From Archangium sp. (GTDB lineage: Bacteria > Myxococcota > Myxococcia > Myxococcales > Myxococcaceae), in the NCBI GenBank assembly GCA_030695565.1, contig JAUYRZ010000084.1:1-64000 (forward strand): 64,000 nucleotides of DNA, in the 5' to 3' direction. Numbering within the stretch: position 1 is the stretch's first letter; each line of letters starts with the position of its first letter. Of this stretch, positions 27,727-35,319 are shown piece by piece. The translations under genes and the position numbers were made by a program. The notes under the pieces are model-generated. The model was not told the origin of the DNA, searched no databases, and was given only the letters and a program-made list of their open reading frames with translations.

Positions 27727-28353
27727 TCAGGGGGGCAGGCTGCGCACCGCCGCTGCGATGTCAGCCCGCCAGGTGCCGAGCCCGGCAGACGCGCGGCGGT
27801 AGAGCACCACCTGCCCCTGCGCGTTGAACACCACCGTGTCGTGTTTCACCGCGGCCGGGTCGAGCGCCTTCCACGCAACACGTTGCGCCGATGCATCTTT
27901 CAAGATGGGCGCAGACAACCGCCCCACGAAGTCACTCGCGTTCGAATCACTCAACGCCACGAACTGCACAGCGCGGTTTTCTGCTTTCAGCTCCGTCCAC
28001 AACGACTCGGCGGTCCCAGCCTGGGACCGGCAGACGGTTCAAAAACCTTCTAACAACACCACCACGAGGGGTCGGCCGGCGAACGCCGACAGCCCATAGG
28101 TCTGCGAGAACCGCGGCGACTGCGGCTGCACATCTTCCAACTGCCAGGTCGGGTACATCGCCATCGCGCCGACGCCCGCATCGTCATTCGCTCCCGCGTC
28201 AGTGCCCGCGTCAACGTCGCGAGTGCCGGCGTCGCTTCGGGTGAAGCCGGCGCCTGCGTCGAGTTCACCTGCGCTGGGTACGCCGCAAGCAGCCACCAGC
28301 GCCACCGCGGCGGTCAACACCACGCGGTGGGTCCAACCCATCTGGTTCTTCAT
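27727..28353 (-). CDS. Predicted selenoprotein: redoxin-like lipoprotein with UxxC
   Basis: 208 codons read through one in-frame TGA (28039-28041). Strong GAGGAG precedes the ATG. The signal peptide ends ALVAAC (lipobox), followed by a DAG linker to ~65. The thioredoxin-like domain starts YPTWQLEDV, and the first beta-strand GRPLVVVLLEGF runs straight into TGA-Thr-Val-Cys (U105xxC108), the position of a CxxC in AhpC/TSA and TlpA-like proteins. The frame then continues uninterrupted for 103 codons through VQFVALSDSNASDF and VVFNAQGQVVLYRR. A perfect hairpin follows the TGA. It overlaps the upstream gene by four bases. The alternative is a nonsense-mutated pseudogene. Confidence 0.8.
28011..28029 (-). 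promoter_or_regulatory. Candidate bacterial SECIS hairpin
   Basis: On the transcript CGGTCCCA-GGC-TGGGACCG, a perfect 8-bp stem with a 3-nt loop starting GG. Seventeen nt separate the UGA from the loop, as in E. coli fdhF (about 18). It lies within the coding frame, as bacterial SECIS elements do. Confidence 0.75.
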
Positions 28354-29603
28354 CGGAGCTCCTCTGTGAGTACGTCGTTGAACTTGAACACGTCTTCACC
28401 GACCAGCCGGACCAGCTTGCTGCCGTCGGCGCGGAAAATTTCCACCACCGGCAGACCCGCGGCGCCCGGCAACGCGGCTTCCATCGCCTCGGCGCTCCAG
28501 TCAGACGCGTCGATCCGTTTGATGAGCACCCGTCGCTCCGCGCGTTCGAACTCGGCGAGCAGCGGTTCCAGCTTCTGGCAGGGCGCGCACCAGCTCGCGC
28601 CGTATTCCACCAGCGTGAGCTGACCCGCAGCGCCAGCGGTGGCCCGCGGCGCAGGCGGCGCGATGACCTCGAACGCGCCACCGATGCCGACGAAGAGACC
28701 CGGCCCGGGGATGAACTGGTAGCCCGAAAGCGCCTGGGTCAGCGGCAGCCTGGCCGCGACGAAAGCCCGCACCGGCCCGGCGATCTGCACCTGCGCGGTG
28801 GGCGTCAGGGTGAGCCACACGCCGCCGGTGTTGGTGCTGTCGAGCCGGCCACCCGAGAGCGGGTCCACCTCCGAGCTCTGCGCGCGCCACTGCGTTTCCA
28901 GACCCAACGAGAATGACAAACGCCCCGACACCACCGGGCCGAACGCGAGCCCGCCGGTGCCACGCAGCTCCGGGCCCCAGCGGAAACCGTCGGCTGTGTC
29001 GTTGAGGCCCACCCGCAAGGTGCCCGAGGCGAACAACGAGAACAAGGCAGGCAACGTCAGGCGCACGTCGAGATCGGCCAGGCCCCAGAACACCCCGCGG
29101 CCGAGCGTGAGGTAGCGCGCCGTCTCGAGCACCGCGGCCTCACCGCTGCGCGCGATGGACGGGCCCGTGGGAAACGCGCTGCCCAACGCGCCCGAGAGCC
29201 GCACCTTGCCGAAACGCCACGCATACCGGGCCCGCGCTTCCAGGTCGCCCAGCCCCACTTCACCGCGGCTGCCGGCCACCACGTCGGTGACGGTGATGGC
29301 CCCGAAGGGCAACTGGAGATCCACCCCGAAGCCGCGGCCCTGCCCAAAACCCACCTGCAGCGTCGAGAGAATGAGATCCAACCGGGCGCCGGTGGGGTCG
29401 ACCACCTGCTGTCCATCAGCCAAGCGCGACGGGAAAGGCACGTAGCCGCCCAACACCTGCGCAGACACCAGCCAGGCCGCGTCGCGACCGCTGTCCAACC
29501 CGGTCTCCACCGCTCCCGACGGGAGCGCGGGGTTGACTCAGGTCGTGCACTGGGCGCTGGCGCGGGTCGCCGCCAACACCCCGAGGAGCAGGAAGGTTCG
29601 CAT
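28350..29603 (-). CDS. Predicted selenoprotein: beta-barrel/thioredoxin fusion with CxxU
   Basis: 417 codons with one in-frame TGA at 29538-29540. Signal peptide MRTFLLLGVLAATRASA is followed by Gln-Cys-Thr-Thr-TGA (C19xxU22) at the mature N-terminus. A beta-strand-rich region ~50-325 (VLGGYVPFPSRL, GVDLQLPFGAITVTD) looks like an outer-membrane barrel of transporter type. A C-terminal thioredoxin domain carries WCAPC (338-342). A GTG five codons upstream may be the real start. A GTG at 29510 would give a protein without signal peptide, which fits poorly. Its stop overlaps the next selenoprotein gene. Fusion of barrel, CxxU and thioredoxin is unusual. Confidence 0.75.
29511..29527 (-). promoter_or_regulatory. 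Candidate bacterial SECIS hairpin
   Basis: On the transcript CGCTCCC-GTC-GGGAGCG, a perfect 7-bp stem with a G-first loop, again exactly 17 nt after the UGA. Confidence 0.72.
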
Positions 29604-31462: not shown

Positions 31463-32704
31463 TTACTTGCGCACGACCCGCACAAATCCCGGTCCTTCAT
31501 CGGTGAGCAGCACGTGTTCCCGCCCCACCCGCAGCACCTCGGAGCGCCGCCACCCGGTGAAGTGAAGGCCGGCGTCGGTGACCGAGACCAGCACGCTGCG
31601 GTCATCAGACTGGGTGCGCAGCCACAGCGGGAGCCGCTCGAAGGCCGCCGGTGGCGAGCTCAAAGCCTCGGGGGTGTGCGCCAGTTGAAGCGGCGGTTCC
31701 TGAAAGCTCGTGGTCCGCGAGGCGCCCGTGAGGCCTGTCAGCGGCGAGTGCCGCCACACGAACTGCGCATCAACAGCCGCGAGGTCTTCGATGTTCGAGC
31801 AGGGGAAGGGGCACTCTTCCAGGCTCCAGCGCGTCACCGAACCGTTGGGGGTACCGAAGTACGCGAGGGGTGGATCGACCGGCGCGTAGAACGAATGATC
31901 ATTCACCCGGAAGCCCCCGTCGGCCCAGATGCTCACCGTCGAAAGCTGGCCACTGGTGCGATAGCGCAGCGCGAAGTCTTCGTCGTGCAGCGCGGGCGTG
32001 GGGAGCGCTGGAAAGTCGGGGAACGAATGCGTCAGGCGAACGCCGCCGTCTTCGAACACCCGCCGCTCGAGCATGTGGGTGAGCGGATCGATCGACCAGA
32101 GCACCTGGCCCGCCACCACCAGCTGGGCGCCGCGAAAGTGGGTGAGCATGCCCGCGGGCGAGCTGATGGTGATGTCGTCGACGCTGCGCAGCTCGCTGGC
32201 CACCGTGTCGTCGGTGAGGGGCCAGAGGCCCGCCGAGGCGGTGGCCCCCGCGGGAATCGGCACTCGAATCACCTGGCCGCTCAGCCCATCGGCGGCGACC
32301 TCCACGAACCGCGAACGCGCGCCCAACGAAGGCTCGAAGGCGACCTTGAGGGTGTGCAGCCCGGGCCGGGTGGGCGTGAAGGTGACGTTCGCTTTGACCG
32401 CCGAGAAGACGGTCTGCTCCAGCGCGCCGACTTGCATCGCCGGGGTGCTGCGCCCATCGGGGTCGATGGCCACCGCATCGATGCGCAGGGTGTCAGACAC
32501 GCAGCTGGTCAACGGGGCGAAGAACGTGAGGGTGATCGGCGCGCCCACGGCCGCGAGCACCGCACCGTGGCCCGTGCCGCCCCCCGTCCCGCCCCCGACG
32601 CCGCGGTTGAGGCTGCCGTTCACGTCGGCCAGTTGGCGCACGCAGTCGTCCTGGGGCGGTGAACACCCGCAGAGCACCGCGAGCAGCAGGCTCAGCCGTC
32701 TCAT
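31463..32704 (-). CDS. Tandem lipoprotein paralogue 3
   Basis: 413 residues. Signal MRRLSLLLAVLCGC has a lipobox, followed by DDCVRQLADVNGSLN and a GGGTGGGTG linker. The family pattern is PITLTFFAPLTSC, then FEPSLGARSRFVEVAADGL, VIRVPIP, LWPLTDDTV and a C-terminal EVLRVGREHVLLTDEGPGF. It is one of three consecutive, same-strand paralogues, joined to its neighbour by an ATGA overlap. Predicted beta-rich and surface or periplasmic. Function unknown. Confidence 0.85.
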   Translation of the reverse strand: MRRLSLLLAVLCGCSPPQDDCVRQLADVNGSLNRGVGGGTGGGTGHGAVLAAVGAPITLTFFAPLTSCVSDTLRIDAVAIDPDGRSTPAMQVGALEQTVFSAVKANVTFTPTRPGLHTLKVAFEPSLGARSRFVEVAADGLSGQVIRVPIPAGATASAGLWPLTDDTVASELRSVDDITISSPAGMLTHFRGAQLVVAGQVLWSIDPLTHMLERRVFEDGGVRLTHSFPDFPALPTPALHDEDFALRYRTSGQLSTVSIWADGGFRVNDHSFYAPVDPPLAYFGTPNGSVTRWSLEECPFPCSNIEDLAAVDAQFVWRHSPLTGLTGASRTTSFQEPPLQLAHTPEALSSPPAAFERLPLWLRTQSDDRSVLVSVTDAGLHFTGWRRSEVLRVGREHVLLTDEGPGFVRVVRK

Positions 32705-34002
32705 CGTTTGCTCACCCGCACGGTGAGCGGGTCGCGGTCGGCGAGCACCACGTGATGCCGCCCCACCCGCAACACCTCGGCGCGCGGCCAGGCGGTCAGC
32801 ACGAGGTCCGCATCGGTGATCGACACCAACACCTTCTGCGCGCCCGGGCCCGGCTCGAGCCACAGCGGCAGTTGCTCGAAAGGGGCTTCCGGCGAGACCA
32901 GCGCTTCAGGTTCGTACTCGAGACCGAAACGCGGGTTGGCAGGCGGCTCACTGAGCGGGCGGGCGAGGGCCCGCAGAGGCCCGAGCCCGAAGACGTTCTC
33001 TCTCGGAGCGTTGTGCCAGACATGACCCGCTTCGAGCGCCACCAGGTTCTTCATCTCGAAGCAGGCCCCGGCGGAACAGCTCGAGCGGCTCCAGCGCCAG
33101 GGCACGCCGCCGTCTTCTTCAACGAAATAGACCAGCGGCGAAGGCGCCTGGCTCAGGGCGTACTGCAGGAAGTCGGCGCCCCCATCGGGCCAGACGCGCA
33201 CCCGGCTCAACCTGCCGTTGGTGCGGTAGCGCAGGGCCACGTCGAGGTCGTGCATGCCCGGCGTGGGTGCGGGTGGAAAGTCGGGGAAGCTGTGGGTCAG
33301 CAGGAGGCCACCGCCGGCCCACTCGCGGCGCTCCAGCCGCTCGGTCGCGTTGACCGACCAGAGCACGTTGTCCACCACCACCAGCGTCGCGCCCGGGAAG
33401 CTCGTGCTGCCGCCATCCGCCGAGGTGACGGTGACGACGGCACCCGCTTCACAGGCGACGGTGTCGTCGGCCAGCGGCCAGACCCGGTTGAGAGAACACC
33501 CGCTGCCATTGGGAATCGGCACCCGCGTGACGGGGTGGTCGAGCCCCTGCTCGGCGACTTCGATGATGAGCTCGCGCGCACCCAGGGACGGCTCGAAGGC
33601 GACGCGCAGGGTGTATCGCCCAGGCGCCGTGGGCAGCACGCTCACGGTGGAGCTGATCGCCCCGACGCCGACCCCGACGAACGGCACGCTGCTCGTGGGG
33701 GTGGGACCCAGCTGGTTGCGAGCGTCGACCAGGGTGGCGTTGACCACCGGCTGTTCACCCTGGCACCCGGAGACGGGCGCGAACACCGTGAGGGTCAACG
33801 TGGTGTTCACGATGCCCAGCGGAGAAACGGTGCCGGCCAGGCCGGTGCCACCCCCACTGCCCCCGGCAAAACTCCCCGCCAGATTGCCTCTGGGGTCGAT
33901 GGGGAGCCGCCGGCAGGTGGTTCCCGGAGGTGGCGAGCAGCCCTCGAGCGCAGCGAACACGGCGATGAGGCAGCACAGGAAGTTTCGCATCGCGGCAGTC
34001 AT
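32701..34002 (-). CDS. Tandem lipoprotein paralogue 2
   Basis: 433 residues starting at the ATG that overlaps the preceding stop. MRNFLCCLIAVFAALEGC, four codons downstream, is the signal peptide. It shares with its neighbours CSPPPG...CRRLPIDPRGN, TLTVFAPVSGCQG, FEPSLGARELIIEVAEQGL, RVPIPNGSGC, LWSVNATERLERREW and EVLRVGRHHVVLADRD. The middle copy of the array. Divergence among copies is substantial, so the duplication is old or the copies are under diversifying pressure. Confidence 0.85.
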   Translation of the reverse strand: MTAAMRNFLCCLIAVFAALEGCSPPPGTTCRRLPIDPRGNLAGSFAGGSGGGTGLAGTVSPLGIVNTTLTLTVFAPVSGCQGEQPVVNATLVDARNQLGPTPTSSVPFVGVGVGAISSTVSVLPTAPGRYTLRVAFEPSLGARELIIEVAEQGLDHPVTRVPIPNGSGCSLNRVWPLADDTVACEAGAVVTVTSADGGSTSFPGATLVVVDNVLWSVNATERLERREWAGGGLLLTHSFPDFPPAPTPGMHDLDVALRYRTNGRLSRVRVWPDGGADFLQYALSQAPSPLVYFVEEDGGVPWRWSRSSCSAGACFEMKNLVALEAGHVWHNAPRENVFGLGPLRALARPLSEPPANPRFGLEYEPEALVSPEAPFEQLPLWLEPGPGAQKVLVSITDADLVLTAWPRAEVLRVGRHHVVLADRDPLTVRVSKR

Positions 34003-35285
34003 CTCCGGATGACGCGCACGAAATCGGCCTGCGCATCGGTGAGTACCAGGTGATGCCGCCCCACCCGCAAGACCTCCGAACGGGGCCACGCGGAGAGCTC
34101 GAAACCACCATCGCGGGCAGTGACCAGCAGGCGCCGGTTGCCCACGCCCTGCTCGAGCCACAGCGGCACGCGCTCGAAACTTTCGGTCACGAAGCGGGGC
34201 GCCTCGGGCCGGTGCGTCAGGGTCATCACGAACGTCGAGGCCGCCGGGGAGGTGGGGCGGGCCGAGGCGGTGACGCGCGAGGCGAGGCCATCGAACGCGA
34301 GCTCGGCTCGCCAGACCAGGCCCGGCTCGACGGCCACCAGGTCGCTGAAGGCATTGCTGCAGTTGAAGCTGTCGAAACACGGCCCCTCGCTCCAGCGAAA
34401 GAGCTCGTCACCGGGCTCGACGAAGAACGCTTCGGGCGGGTTCCCCAACGCATCGGCCCTGAACTCCTCCACGCTGAAGCCGCCGTCGCGCTGCACCTTC
34501 ACGCGCGCCAGCTCGCCCGCTGGCCGGTAGCGCAACGCCACGTCGACGTCGTGCATGCCCGGGGTCAGGGTGGCCGCGAAGTTGGCGAAGACGTGCGTGA
34601 CCCGAACGCCGCCGTCTTCCCACACCCGCCGCTCGAGCTGCCGCAGGGCCGGGTGAATCGACCAGAGCACCGTGTCGGCCACCACCAGGTGGGAGCCAGG
34701 AAAGGTCTGCACCCCGCCGTCGGCCGAGCTGATGCTCACCGTGCCGGGGCCGCGCGCTTCACACGCGACGGTGTCGTCGGAGAGTGGCCAGAGCGCGTTG
34801 GTGTAGCAGTTGGCCCCGTTGGGAATCGGCACCCGCACCACCGGCGCCTCGCGCAGCGGGTCGGCGGCGACGTCGATGAAGAGGGAGCGCACACCCAGGG
34901 AAGGCTCGAAAGAAACCCTCAGGGCGTACAGCCCTGTTTTCCCGGGCGTGAAGTTCACCGTCGTGCCCACCCCGCTGCTGATGTTCAGCCGCGGCGCGGT
35001 GACGGTGAGGTCCGTCACCGGGAGGTTGTCGGGGTCGATCAACGTGACGTCGGTGCGCAAGCTGTCGCCCTGGCAACCCGAGAGCGGCGCGAAGAGGGTC
35101 ACCGAGACCGGCAAACCCACCACCGCCAGCGGGGCGCTCGCGCCACCGGAACCGCCCACGCCGCCCGCGAAACCGCCGTTGGGTGCGCCGGTGACGTCGA
35201 TCAACTGACGGGGACAGCCGGGCGGCGGTGGCGAACACGCGGGGAGCAACGCGAGGACGATGAAGAGCCAGGGGGCGCGACGCAT
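33999..35285 (-). CDS. Tandem lipoprotein paralogue 1
   Basis: 428 residues, MRRAPWLFIVLALLPAC with lipobox. First gene of the three-gene array. Conserved points: CPRQLIDVTGAPNGGF, SVTLFAPLSGCQGDSLRTD, FEPSLGVRSLFIDVAADPL, PIPNGANCYTNALWPLSDD and the ending EVLRVGRHHLVLTDAQADF. Internal cysteines are shared with paralogue 2 but mostly lost in paralogue 3. No known domain recognised. Confidence 0.85.
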   Translation of the reverse strand: MRRAPWLFIVLALLPACSPPPPGCPRQLIDVTGAPNGGFAGGVGGSGGASAPLAVVGLPVSVTLFAPLSGCQGDSLRTDVTLIDPDNLPVTDLTVTAPRLNISSGVGTTVNFTPGKTGLYALRVSFEPSLGVRSLFIDVAADPLREAPVVRVPIPNGANCYTNALWPLSDDTVACEARGPGTVSISSADGGVQTFPGSHLVVADTVLWSIHPALRQLERRVWEDGGVRVTHVFANFAATLTPGMHDVDVALRYRPAGELARVKVQRDGGFSVEEFRADALGNPPEAFFVEPGDELFRWSEGPCFDSFNCSNAFSDLVAVEPGLVWRAELAFDGLASRVTASARPTSPAASTFVMTLTHRPEAPRFVTESFERVPLWLEQGVGNRRLLVTARDGGFELSAWPRSEVLRVGRHHLVLTDAQADFVRVIRR

Positions 35286-35319
35286 CGGGCGACACCATAG
35301 GCACAAGGTGTGGCGGGGA

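What the first reader, a model, noticed from the sequence alone, without database searches (positions are those of the whole stretch)
27727..28353. In-frame TGA in a thioredoxin-fold lipoprotein: likely selenocysteine (UxxC)
The frame 27727-28353 is open on both sides of one TGA (28039-28041). The TGA sits where a redox Cys is expected: beta-strand VVVLLEGF, then TGA-Thr-Val-Cys, then RSQAGTAESL. A perfect 8-bp hairpin with a GGC loop lies 17 nt after the UGA, fitting the known bacterial SECIS geometry (loop about 16-37 nt downstream, a G among the first two loop bases). A random nonsense mutation would rarely fall exactly on the catalytic Cys codon and also be followed by such a hairpin.
Basis: partly seen in the sequence, partly recalled or inferred. 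Interest (0 to 1): 0.9.

Follow-up and report, generated by a model that had tools for sequence, protein, structure and literature searches.

The report
Two-gene selenoprotein operon in myxobacterium
The in-frame stop codon really does look like a codon for the rare amino acid selenocysteine in a membrane-anchored redox protein, and the gene just before it, an outer-membrane channel fused to a thioredoxin, turns out to carry a second one, revealing a selenoprotein family that we found in none of the catalogues we could check.

Summary
The genome has tRNA-Sec, SelA, SelB and SelD. Six homologues in other genomes keep TGA at the same codon, two close homologues have Cys there (and have lost the hairpin), and the hairpin shows compensatory changes across 16 sequences. 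The protein is a ResA/TlpA-like redoxin lipoprotein (UTVC), a sister of NCBIfam redoxin_TUGYCR.

The gene directly upstream, overlapping by ATGA (29603-28350, minus), is also a selenoprotein: signal peptide, then QCTT-U, a predicted 12-strand outer-membrane barrel (COG4313/FapF-like) and a C-terminal thioredoxin domain (WCAPC). Its SECIS loop also lies 17 nt after the UGA. Only these two of 1785 TGAs in the window have that geometry with at least 7 Watson-Crick pairs. The barrel family is widespread in Myxococcota: 17 loci of one scan read as CxxU with the hairpin; Cys versions lack it. It matched no NCBIfam selenoprotein model and none of 119 families in a 2026 review. Most likely the pair forms a selenol/thiol relay at the outer membrane; substrate unknown. 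Translation through the UGA has not been shown experimentally.

The parts
27727..28353 (-). Redoxin lipoprotein selenoprotein gene, 208 aa, ATG at 28353-28351, stop TGA at 27729-27727; UxxC motif UTVC
   Evidence: Pfam Redoxin 27.8 bits, cut-off 26.6; ResA-like fold
28039..28041 (-). UGA codon read as selenocysteine (residue 105)
   Evidence: TGA in six homologues at the same column, TGC in two
28011..28029 (-). bSECIS hairpin CGGTCCCA-GGC-TGGGACCG; apical loop 17 nt after the UGA
   Evidence: covariation
28285..28287 (-). Lipobox cysteine (LVAAC), followed by a low-complexity linker of about 45 aa
   Evidence: sequence; linkers vary among homologues
28350..29603 (-). Upstream partner gene, 417 aa: signal peptide, QCTTU, predicted outer-membrane beta-barrel, C-terminal thioredoxin domain. 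Also a selenoprotein
   Evidence: (Pfam Thioredoxin 32.4 bits, cut-off 23.5)
29538..29540 (-). UGA codon read as selenocysteine in the CxxU motif (CTTU) at the predicted mature N-terminus of the barrel protein
   Evidence: TGA in 10 further redoxin-paired loci and in the wider family; Cys in L058, L061, L115, L116, L135, L136
29511..29527 (-). bSECIS hairpin CGCTCCC-GTC-GGGAGCG; apical loop 17 nt after the UGA
   Evidence: covariation
28578..28589 (-). CAPC active site of the C-terminal thioredoxin domain of the barrel protein (invariant W-C-x-x-C)
28350..28353 (-). ATGA overlap: stop of the barrel gene and start of the redoxin gene share bases, as expected for a coupled operon
   Evidence: the same overlap in L054, L055, L056 and L058

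Best explanation
This is a two-gene operon in which both products are selenoproteins. SelB with Sec-tRNA reads UGA as selenocysteine at two places, each directed by a hairpin whose loop lies 17 nt downstream. The first product is exported, has a CxxU pair at its mature N-terminus, is predicted to form a COG4313/FapF-like outer-membrane channel and ends in a periplasmic thioredoxin domain (CxxC). The second is a lipoprotein with a ResA/TlpA-like redoxin domain (UxxC). Most likely they work together as a selenol/thiol-disulfide relay on the periplasmic side of the outer membrane: electrons pass between the lipoprotein redoxin, the thioredoxin domain and the CxxU at the channel mouth, and reduce an oxidised small molecule or the channel itself. 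Shown by sequence: the conserved UGAs, the hairpins, the machinery, the gene pairing and the domains. Inferred: actual Sec insertion (very likely), location, and partnership in the relay (about as likely as not). Unknown: the substrate and the direction of electron flow. The confidence given is for both UGAs encoding selenocysteine in a functional operon; for the relay itself it is about 0.5.
For: Machinery: tRNA-Sec, SelB, SelA, SelD in the same genome. Redoxin: six homologues with TGA at the same codon, and coding conservation continues after the TGA (window against the others 46-62% aa identity with many synonymous changes). Two homologues have TGC and no hairpin. Hairpin: 112 of 112 stem cells paired in 16 sequences of this family plus the TUGYCR sister family, covariation score 0.451 against 0.155 in shuffles (0 of 500 as high), falling away when partners are slid. 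Barrel: TGA in CTTU in every TGA-type cassette read, then in 17 loci of a scan of 377 genomes as CTTU, CATU, CSTU, CSAU or CVVU with the hairpin 17 nt downstream, while CATC members lack it; compensatory G-C to U-A change at one pair, covariation 0.153 against 0.074. Pairing: 11 loci have both genes with U, two have both with C; in a sister branch a U barrel is followed by a Cys redoxin lipoprotein (L128/L140, L129, L124/L139). Folds: redoxin to ResA (E 1.2e-8), barrel to FapF and COG4313 channel (E 5e-14, 8e-12).
Against: No expression or mass-spectrometry data; Sec insertion is inferred. The AlphaFold model has low confidence over residues 1-31 of the barrel, which hold the CxxU. No tRNA-Sec was found in the genome of L059 (G195, a MAG of unstated completeness), although its cassette has both TGAs. 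The hairpin bases also code for conserved residues (R-S-Q-A-G; N-P-A-L-P), so part of the hairpin conservation could be protein constraint. The Rfam scan of the region found no SECIS family, but no bacterial SECIS model was shown to be able to detect it. Direct interaction of the two proteins is inferred from gene order alone.
Confidence: 0.9

Rival explanations
1. The TGA is an ordinary nonsense mutation or a sequencing error, and the gene is a pseudogene or split in two.
For: A stop codon inside an otherwise open frame is most often that; many of the relatives are draft MAGs.
Against: The same codon is TGA in six homologues in other genomes at 46-62% identity, and coding conservation continues downstream. 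The only other residue seen at the column in close homologues is Cys. The neighbouring gene shows the same pattern independently.
Confidence: 0.02
2. UGA is read through as a standard amino acid (a general stop-codon reassignment or leaky readthrough), not as selenocysteine.
For: The frame stays open after the TGA.
Against: TGA also serves as the normal stop of both genes, so there is no general reassignment. The two TGAs fall exactly on Cys columns of redox motifs, each followed by a hairpin at the same spacing, and the complete Sec machinery is present.
Confidence: 0.03
3. Both genes encode selenoproteins, but they do not form one relay: the barrel is a channel with its own CxxU/Trx redox switch, and the redoxin is an independent periplasmic reductase or peroxidase that merely shares the operon.
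For: Some barrel genes stand next to genes without a redoxin domain (L146), and in G169 the Cys redoxin and the barrel lie on different contigs. TUGYCR redoxins have no barrel next to them.
Against: Adjacency and order are kept in 11 U/U, 2 C/C and 3 U/C loci, often with an ATGA overlap.
Confidence: 0.3
4. The CxxU and UxxC groups bind or detoxify a metal or metalloid (for example mercury, arsenic, selenium), with the channel moving the product, instead of running a thiol-disulfide relay.
For: The barrel relative in G163 has a UPGU motif and a His-rich linker before its thioredoxin domain. Known metal-handling selenoproteins exist (MerT-like, MbdU in PMC13188914 Table 1).
Against: The window protein has no His-rich stretch, and both partners have standard thioredoxin-fold motifs; no metal-resistance gene was recognised beside it, though neighbours were only read as ORFs.
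Confidence: 0.15

Closest known systems
NCBIfam NF053656 redoxin_TUGYCR (TUGYCR motif thioredoxin fold (seleno)protein)
   Same: Redoxin-fold lipoprotein, UxxCR motif at the same position, SECIS with loop at +17, found in the same bacterial family
   Different: The window protein scores 36.6 bits against a cut-off of 100, has UTVCRSQ in place of UGYCR, lies outside the TUGYCR branch (100/99 support), and sits beside the barrel gene, which the four TUGYCR loci examined do not
Redoxin family protein (PF08534, UxxC) and Prx-like 3 of the GOS survey (PMC13188914 Table 1; PMC2398784)
   Same: Redoxin domain with UxxC
   Different: Representative sequence HEU0032618.1 could not be fetched, so identity or distance is untested; no barrel partner is described in the passages read
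ResA / TlpA / DsbE thiol-disulfide oxidoreductases
   Same: Fold (Foldseek E 1.2e-8 to ResA 2h1b) and periplasmic CxxC-type site
   Different: Sec in place of the first Cys; 17% identity; long low-complexity linker after the lipobox
COG4313 / Phenol_MetA_deg channel and FapF outer-membrane barrels
   Same: Predicted barrel fold (FapF 5o67 E 5e-14, COG4313 4rl8 E 8e-12)
   Different: N-terminal CxxU and C-terminal thioredoxin domain; about 13-16% identity; no Pfam barrel family reaches its cut-off
Known barrel selenoproteins: TonB-dependent receptor FCYXU type (NF049945) and GSU2204-type MtrB/PioB barrel (NF041027)
   Same: Outer-membrane barrel with Sec
   Different: No match to either model in the NCBIfam scans; different motif and domain architecture

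Membership tests
Bacterial selenoprotein | In-frame UGA at a redox Cys column, with UGA and Cys homologues | tested here: met
Bacterial selenoprotein | bSECIS: 4-16 bp stem, 3-9 nt loop with G in the first two bases, loop 16-37 nt after UGA, MFE at most -7.5 kcal/mol (PMC13188914) | tested here: met
   8 bp, GGC, 17 nt, -17.0 kcal/mol; barrel 7 bp, GTC, 17 nt, -17.7 kcal/mol over the 39 nt folded
Bacterial selenoprotein | selA, selB, selC, selD in the genome | tested here: met
Bacterial selenoprotein | Selenium present at the UGA position of the protein | not testable with these tools
   needs 75Se labelling or mass spectrometry
Pfam Redoxin PF08534 | Score over the gathering cut-off | tested here: met
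   27.8 bits against 26.6
NCBIfam NF053656 redoxin_TUGYCR | Score over the curated cut-off of 100 bits | tested here: not met
   36.6 bits
Pfam Thioredoxin PF00085 (C-terminal domain of the barrel protein) | Score over the gathering cut-off with WCxxC | tested here: met
   32.4 bits against 23.5; WCAPC
Phenol_MetA_deg / COG4313 channel | Sequence match over the Pfam cut-off | tested here: not met
   No match for the window protein; 13.5 bits against 22 for L058. Fold similarity only
Any of the 119 catalogued prokaryotic selenoprotein families (barrel partner) | Listed family with N-terminal CxxU, barrel and C-terminal thioredoxin | tested here: not met
   Table 1 of PMC13188914 read; NCBIfam scans give thioredoxin-domain fragments only

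The most novel reading that the evidence does not exclude
A widespread, uncatalogued selenoprotein family in Myxococcota: an outer-membrane channel fused to thioredoxin, with a CxxU (or UxxU) at the channel's periplasmic N-terminus, that forms with an adjacent seleno-redoxin lipoprotein a dedicated outer-membrane redox system, in which selenium chemistry acts directly on what enters or leaves the cell.
Probability: 0.5. Interest if true: 0.8.

Novelty: new variant of a known kind. Interest (0 to 1): 0.68.

Why it matters
Standard gene callers end these genes at the UGA or start after it, so the CxxU end of the barrel and the catalytic half of the redoxin would be missing from annotation. The pair points to a selenium-dependent redox process at the outer membrane of myxobacteria, whereas the selenoprotein-rich bacteria described in the review PMC9312934 were mostly anaerobes. 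The natural U/U, U/C and C/C versions give a ready set for asking what selenium adds, and for testing whether two partners switch together between Sec and Cys.

Tried and rejected
Reading the frame on the plus strand: meaningless, the gene is on the minus strand. Folding energy as proof of SECIS: not significant on its own. Rfam scan of the region: no SECIS family, only sub-threshold chance hits. PDB sequence search with the redoxin alignment: nothing at E 0.01. Plasmid search with the barrel protein: nothing. Promoter and terminator scan: nothing useful. Barrel gene beside TUGYCR redoxins: absent. Paper searches for TUGYCR and for selenoproteins of myxobacteria: nothing relevant. Haft and Tolstoy 2025 (PMC12013261), the paper on novel selenoprotein neighbourhoods, is not held, so prior description there could be checked only through the 2026 review. 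One fetched region (L147) was a mistyped placeholder and was not used.

Full report
Observation. The frame lies on the minus strand from ATG 28353 to the stop at 27729-27727 and holds one internal TGA at 28041-28039. The predicted protein is a lipoprotein (LVAAC) with a low-complexity linker and a redoxin domain (Pfam PF08534, 27.8 bits). The motif is EGF-U-TVCRSQAG. The hairpin CGGTCCCA-GGC-TGGGACCG has its loop 17 nt after the UGA. Folding energy alone does not single it out, and loose hairpins near TGAs are common in this DNA. The exact geometry occurs at only two of the 1785 TGAs on both strands of the window.

Machinery. The same genome has tRNA-Sec, SelB, SelA and SelD. tRNA-Sec is found in 87 of 96 genomes of the family, so the machinery is general there; the redoxin and barrel genes are not.

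Homologues of the redoxin. In the bacterial family, four genomes have a close homologue with TGA at the same codon (L018, L019, L020, L021); two loci have TGC (L022, L029). Two more TGA forms come from the GTDB collection: L059 (Deltaproteobacteria MAG) and L060 (Kofleriaceae MAG). Records for the family matches are titled Myxococcaceae, Myxococcus or Myxococcales. Coding conservation continues past the TGA. More distant Cys relatives occur in G187 and G169. A tree separates this group from the sister family TUGYCR with 100/99 support.

Hairpin evidence. In the redoxin and TUGYCR sequences together the stem pairs in all 112 cells, with pair types GC/UA/UG/AU at one position and GC/CG at another; no shuffle reaches the covariation score, and slid partners lose it. 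The counts include related sequences and the region also codes, so the numbers are not probabilities. The two Cys homologues cannot form the stem.

The second selenoprotein. Reading the loci around the gene showed that the upstream gene ends in the ATGA overlap and begins with a signal peptide followed by QCTT, an in-frame TGA and VNPALP. In the window this TGA is at 29540-29538, with the hairpin CGCTCCC-GTC-GGGAGCG, loop again at +17. Its protein has a barrel-like middle and a C-terminal thioredoxin domain with WCAPC. In the two Cys cassettes this gene has CASC (L058, L061), so in these cassettes both genes carry the same residue type.

Wider distribution. A profile of the barrel protein finds, outside the cassettes, Cys forms in G168 and G169 (CATC) and a UPGU form in G163. 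G163 has tRNA-Sec; G168 and G169 show none, though they are incomplete. In 377 genomes of the phylum of the Kofleriaceae MAG, 44 genomes have a match, many of them to the thioredoxin part only. Of the 20 best loci, 17 were read as CxxU with the hairpin, two as CATC without it, and one was not resolved by the script. Four of these (L120-L123) have a downstream U redoxin, in addition to the Kofleriaceae MAG itself (L119, the same genome as L060). L128 (= L140), L129 and L124 (= L139) have a downstream redoxin with Cys; for L139 and L140 it was read in full as a lipoprotein. In all, 11 loci are U/U, 2 are C/C and 3 are U/C.

Barrel hairpin. Over 24 sequences 91.7% of stem cells pair, with eight compensatory cells at the outermost pair counted; no shuffle reaches the covariation score. 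Seven rows do not pair at the position next to the loop, so their loop is wider than 3 nt (for example GCGCTCC-CGGGT-GGAGCGC in L059).

Structure. AlphaFold gives the redoxin domain with blocks mostly above 90 pLDDT and a ResA-like fold. The partner is a barrel with a thioredoxin domain (mean pLDDT 78.7); its closest solved folds are FapF and the COG4313 channel. Residues 1-26 and 29-31, which include CTTU, are below 50, so the position of the CxxU is inferred. For a barrel with an even number of strands both ends face the periplasm (general knowledge), which would put the CxxU, the thioredoxin domain and the lipoprotein in one compartment, if the lipoprotein stays on the inner side.

Novelty. 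The redoxin is a new subfamily next to NF053656 and perhaps the same kind as the catalogued 'Redoxin family protein' UxxC (PMC13188914; its reference sequence could not be fetched). The barrel-thioredoxin CxxU protein matches no NCBIfam model beyond thioredoxin fragments and is not among the 119 families tabulated in PMC13188914. Two barrel selenoproteins are listed there (NF049945, NF041027), so Sec in a barrel protein is not new in itself. Operons with several selenoprotein genes are also known.

Mechanism. The best reading is a periplasmic selenol/thiol relay between lipoprotein redoxin, thioredoxin domain and CxxU. Gene pairing and domain content support it; interaction, direction and substrate are untested.

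Noticed in passing
L110 (G163:C1), barrel gene on the minus strand, 8016-6487: Barrel relative with two in-frame TGAs, U-P-G-U (TUPGUVNPNLP), one hairpin at +17 after the second, a His-rich linker before the thioredoxin domain; genome has tRNA-Sec.
   Followed up: partly
L019/L054 and L029/L061 (genome G094): One genome holds both a Sec/Sec cassette and a separate Cys/Cys cassette, so Sec and Cys versions coexist as paralogues.
   Followed up: partly
L030-L034, L041-L050: TUGYCR selenoproteins with conserved TGA and SECIS in 10 of 96 genomes of the family, none over cut-off in the window's own genome.
   Followed up: partly
G420, G314, G348: Three full-length barrel copies each with one TGA in a single genome, suggesting expansion of the family.
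   Followed up: no
L115 603-953 and L116 2134-2487: A small conserved lipoprotein gene (CGxWDSxKxLxALDDQELEALC) lies directly upstream of the Cys-type barrel in two related genomes.
   Followed up: no
window 31463-35306, minus strand: Three consecutive similar lipoprotein genes of about 430 aa, apparently tandem duplicates.
   Followed up: no
G196:C163 3030-3125 and 10027-10122: Two tRNA-Sec genes with equal scores about 7 kb apart in the Kofleriaceae MAG.
   Followed up: no
genome G195 (source of L059): Both TGAs and hairpins present but no tRNA-Sec found; most likely an incomplete MAG.
   Followed up: no
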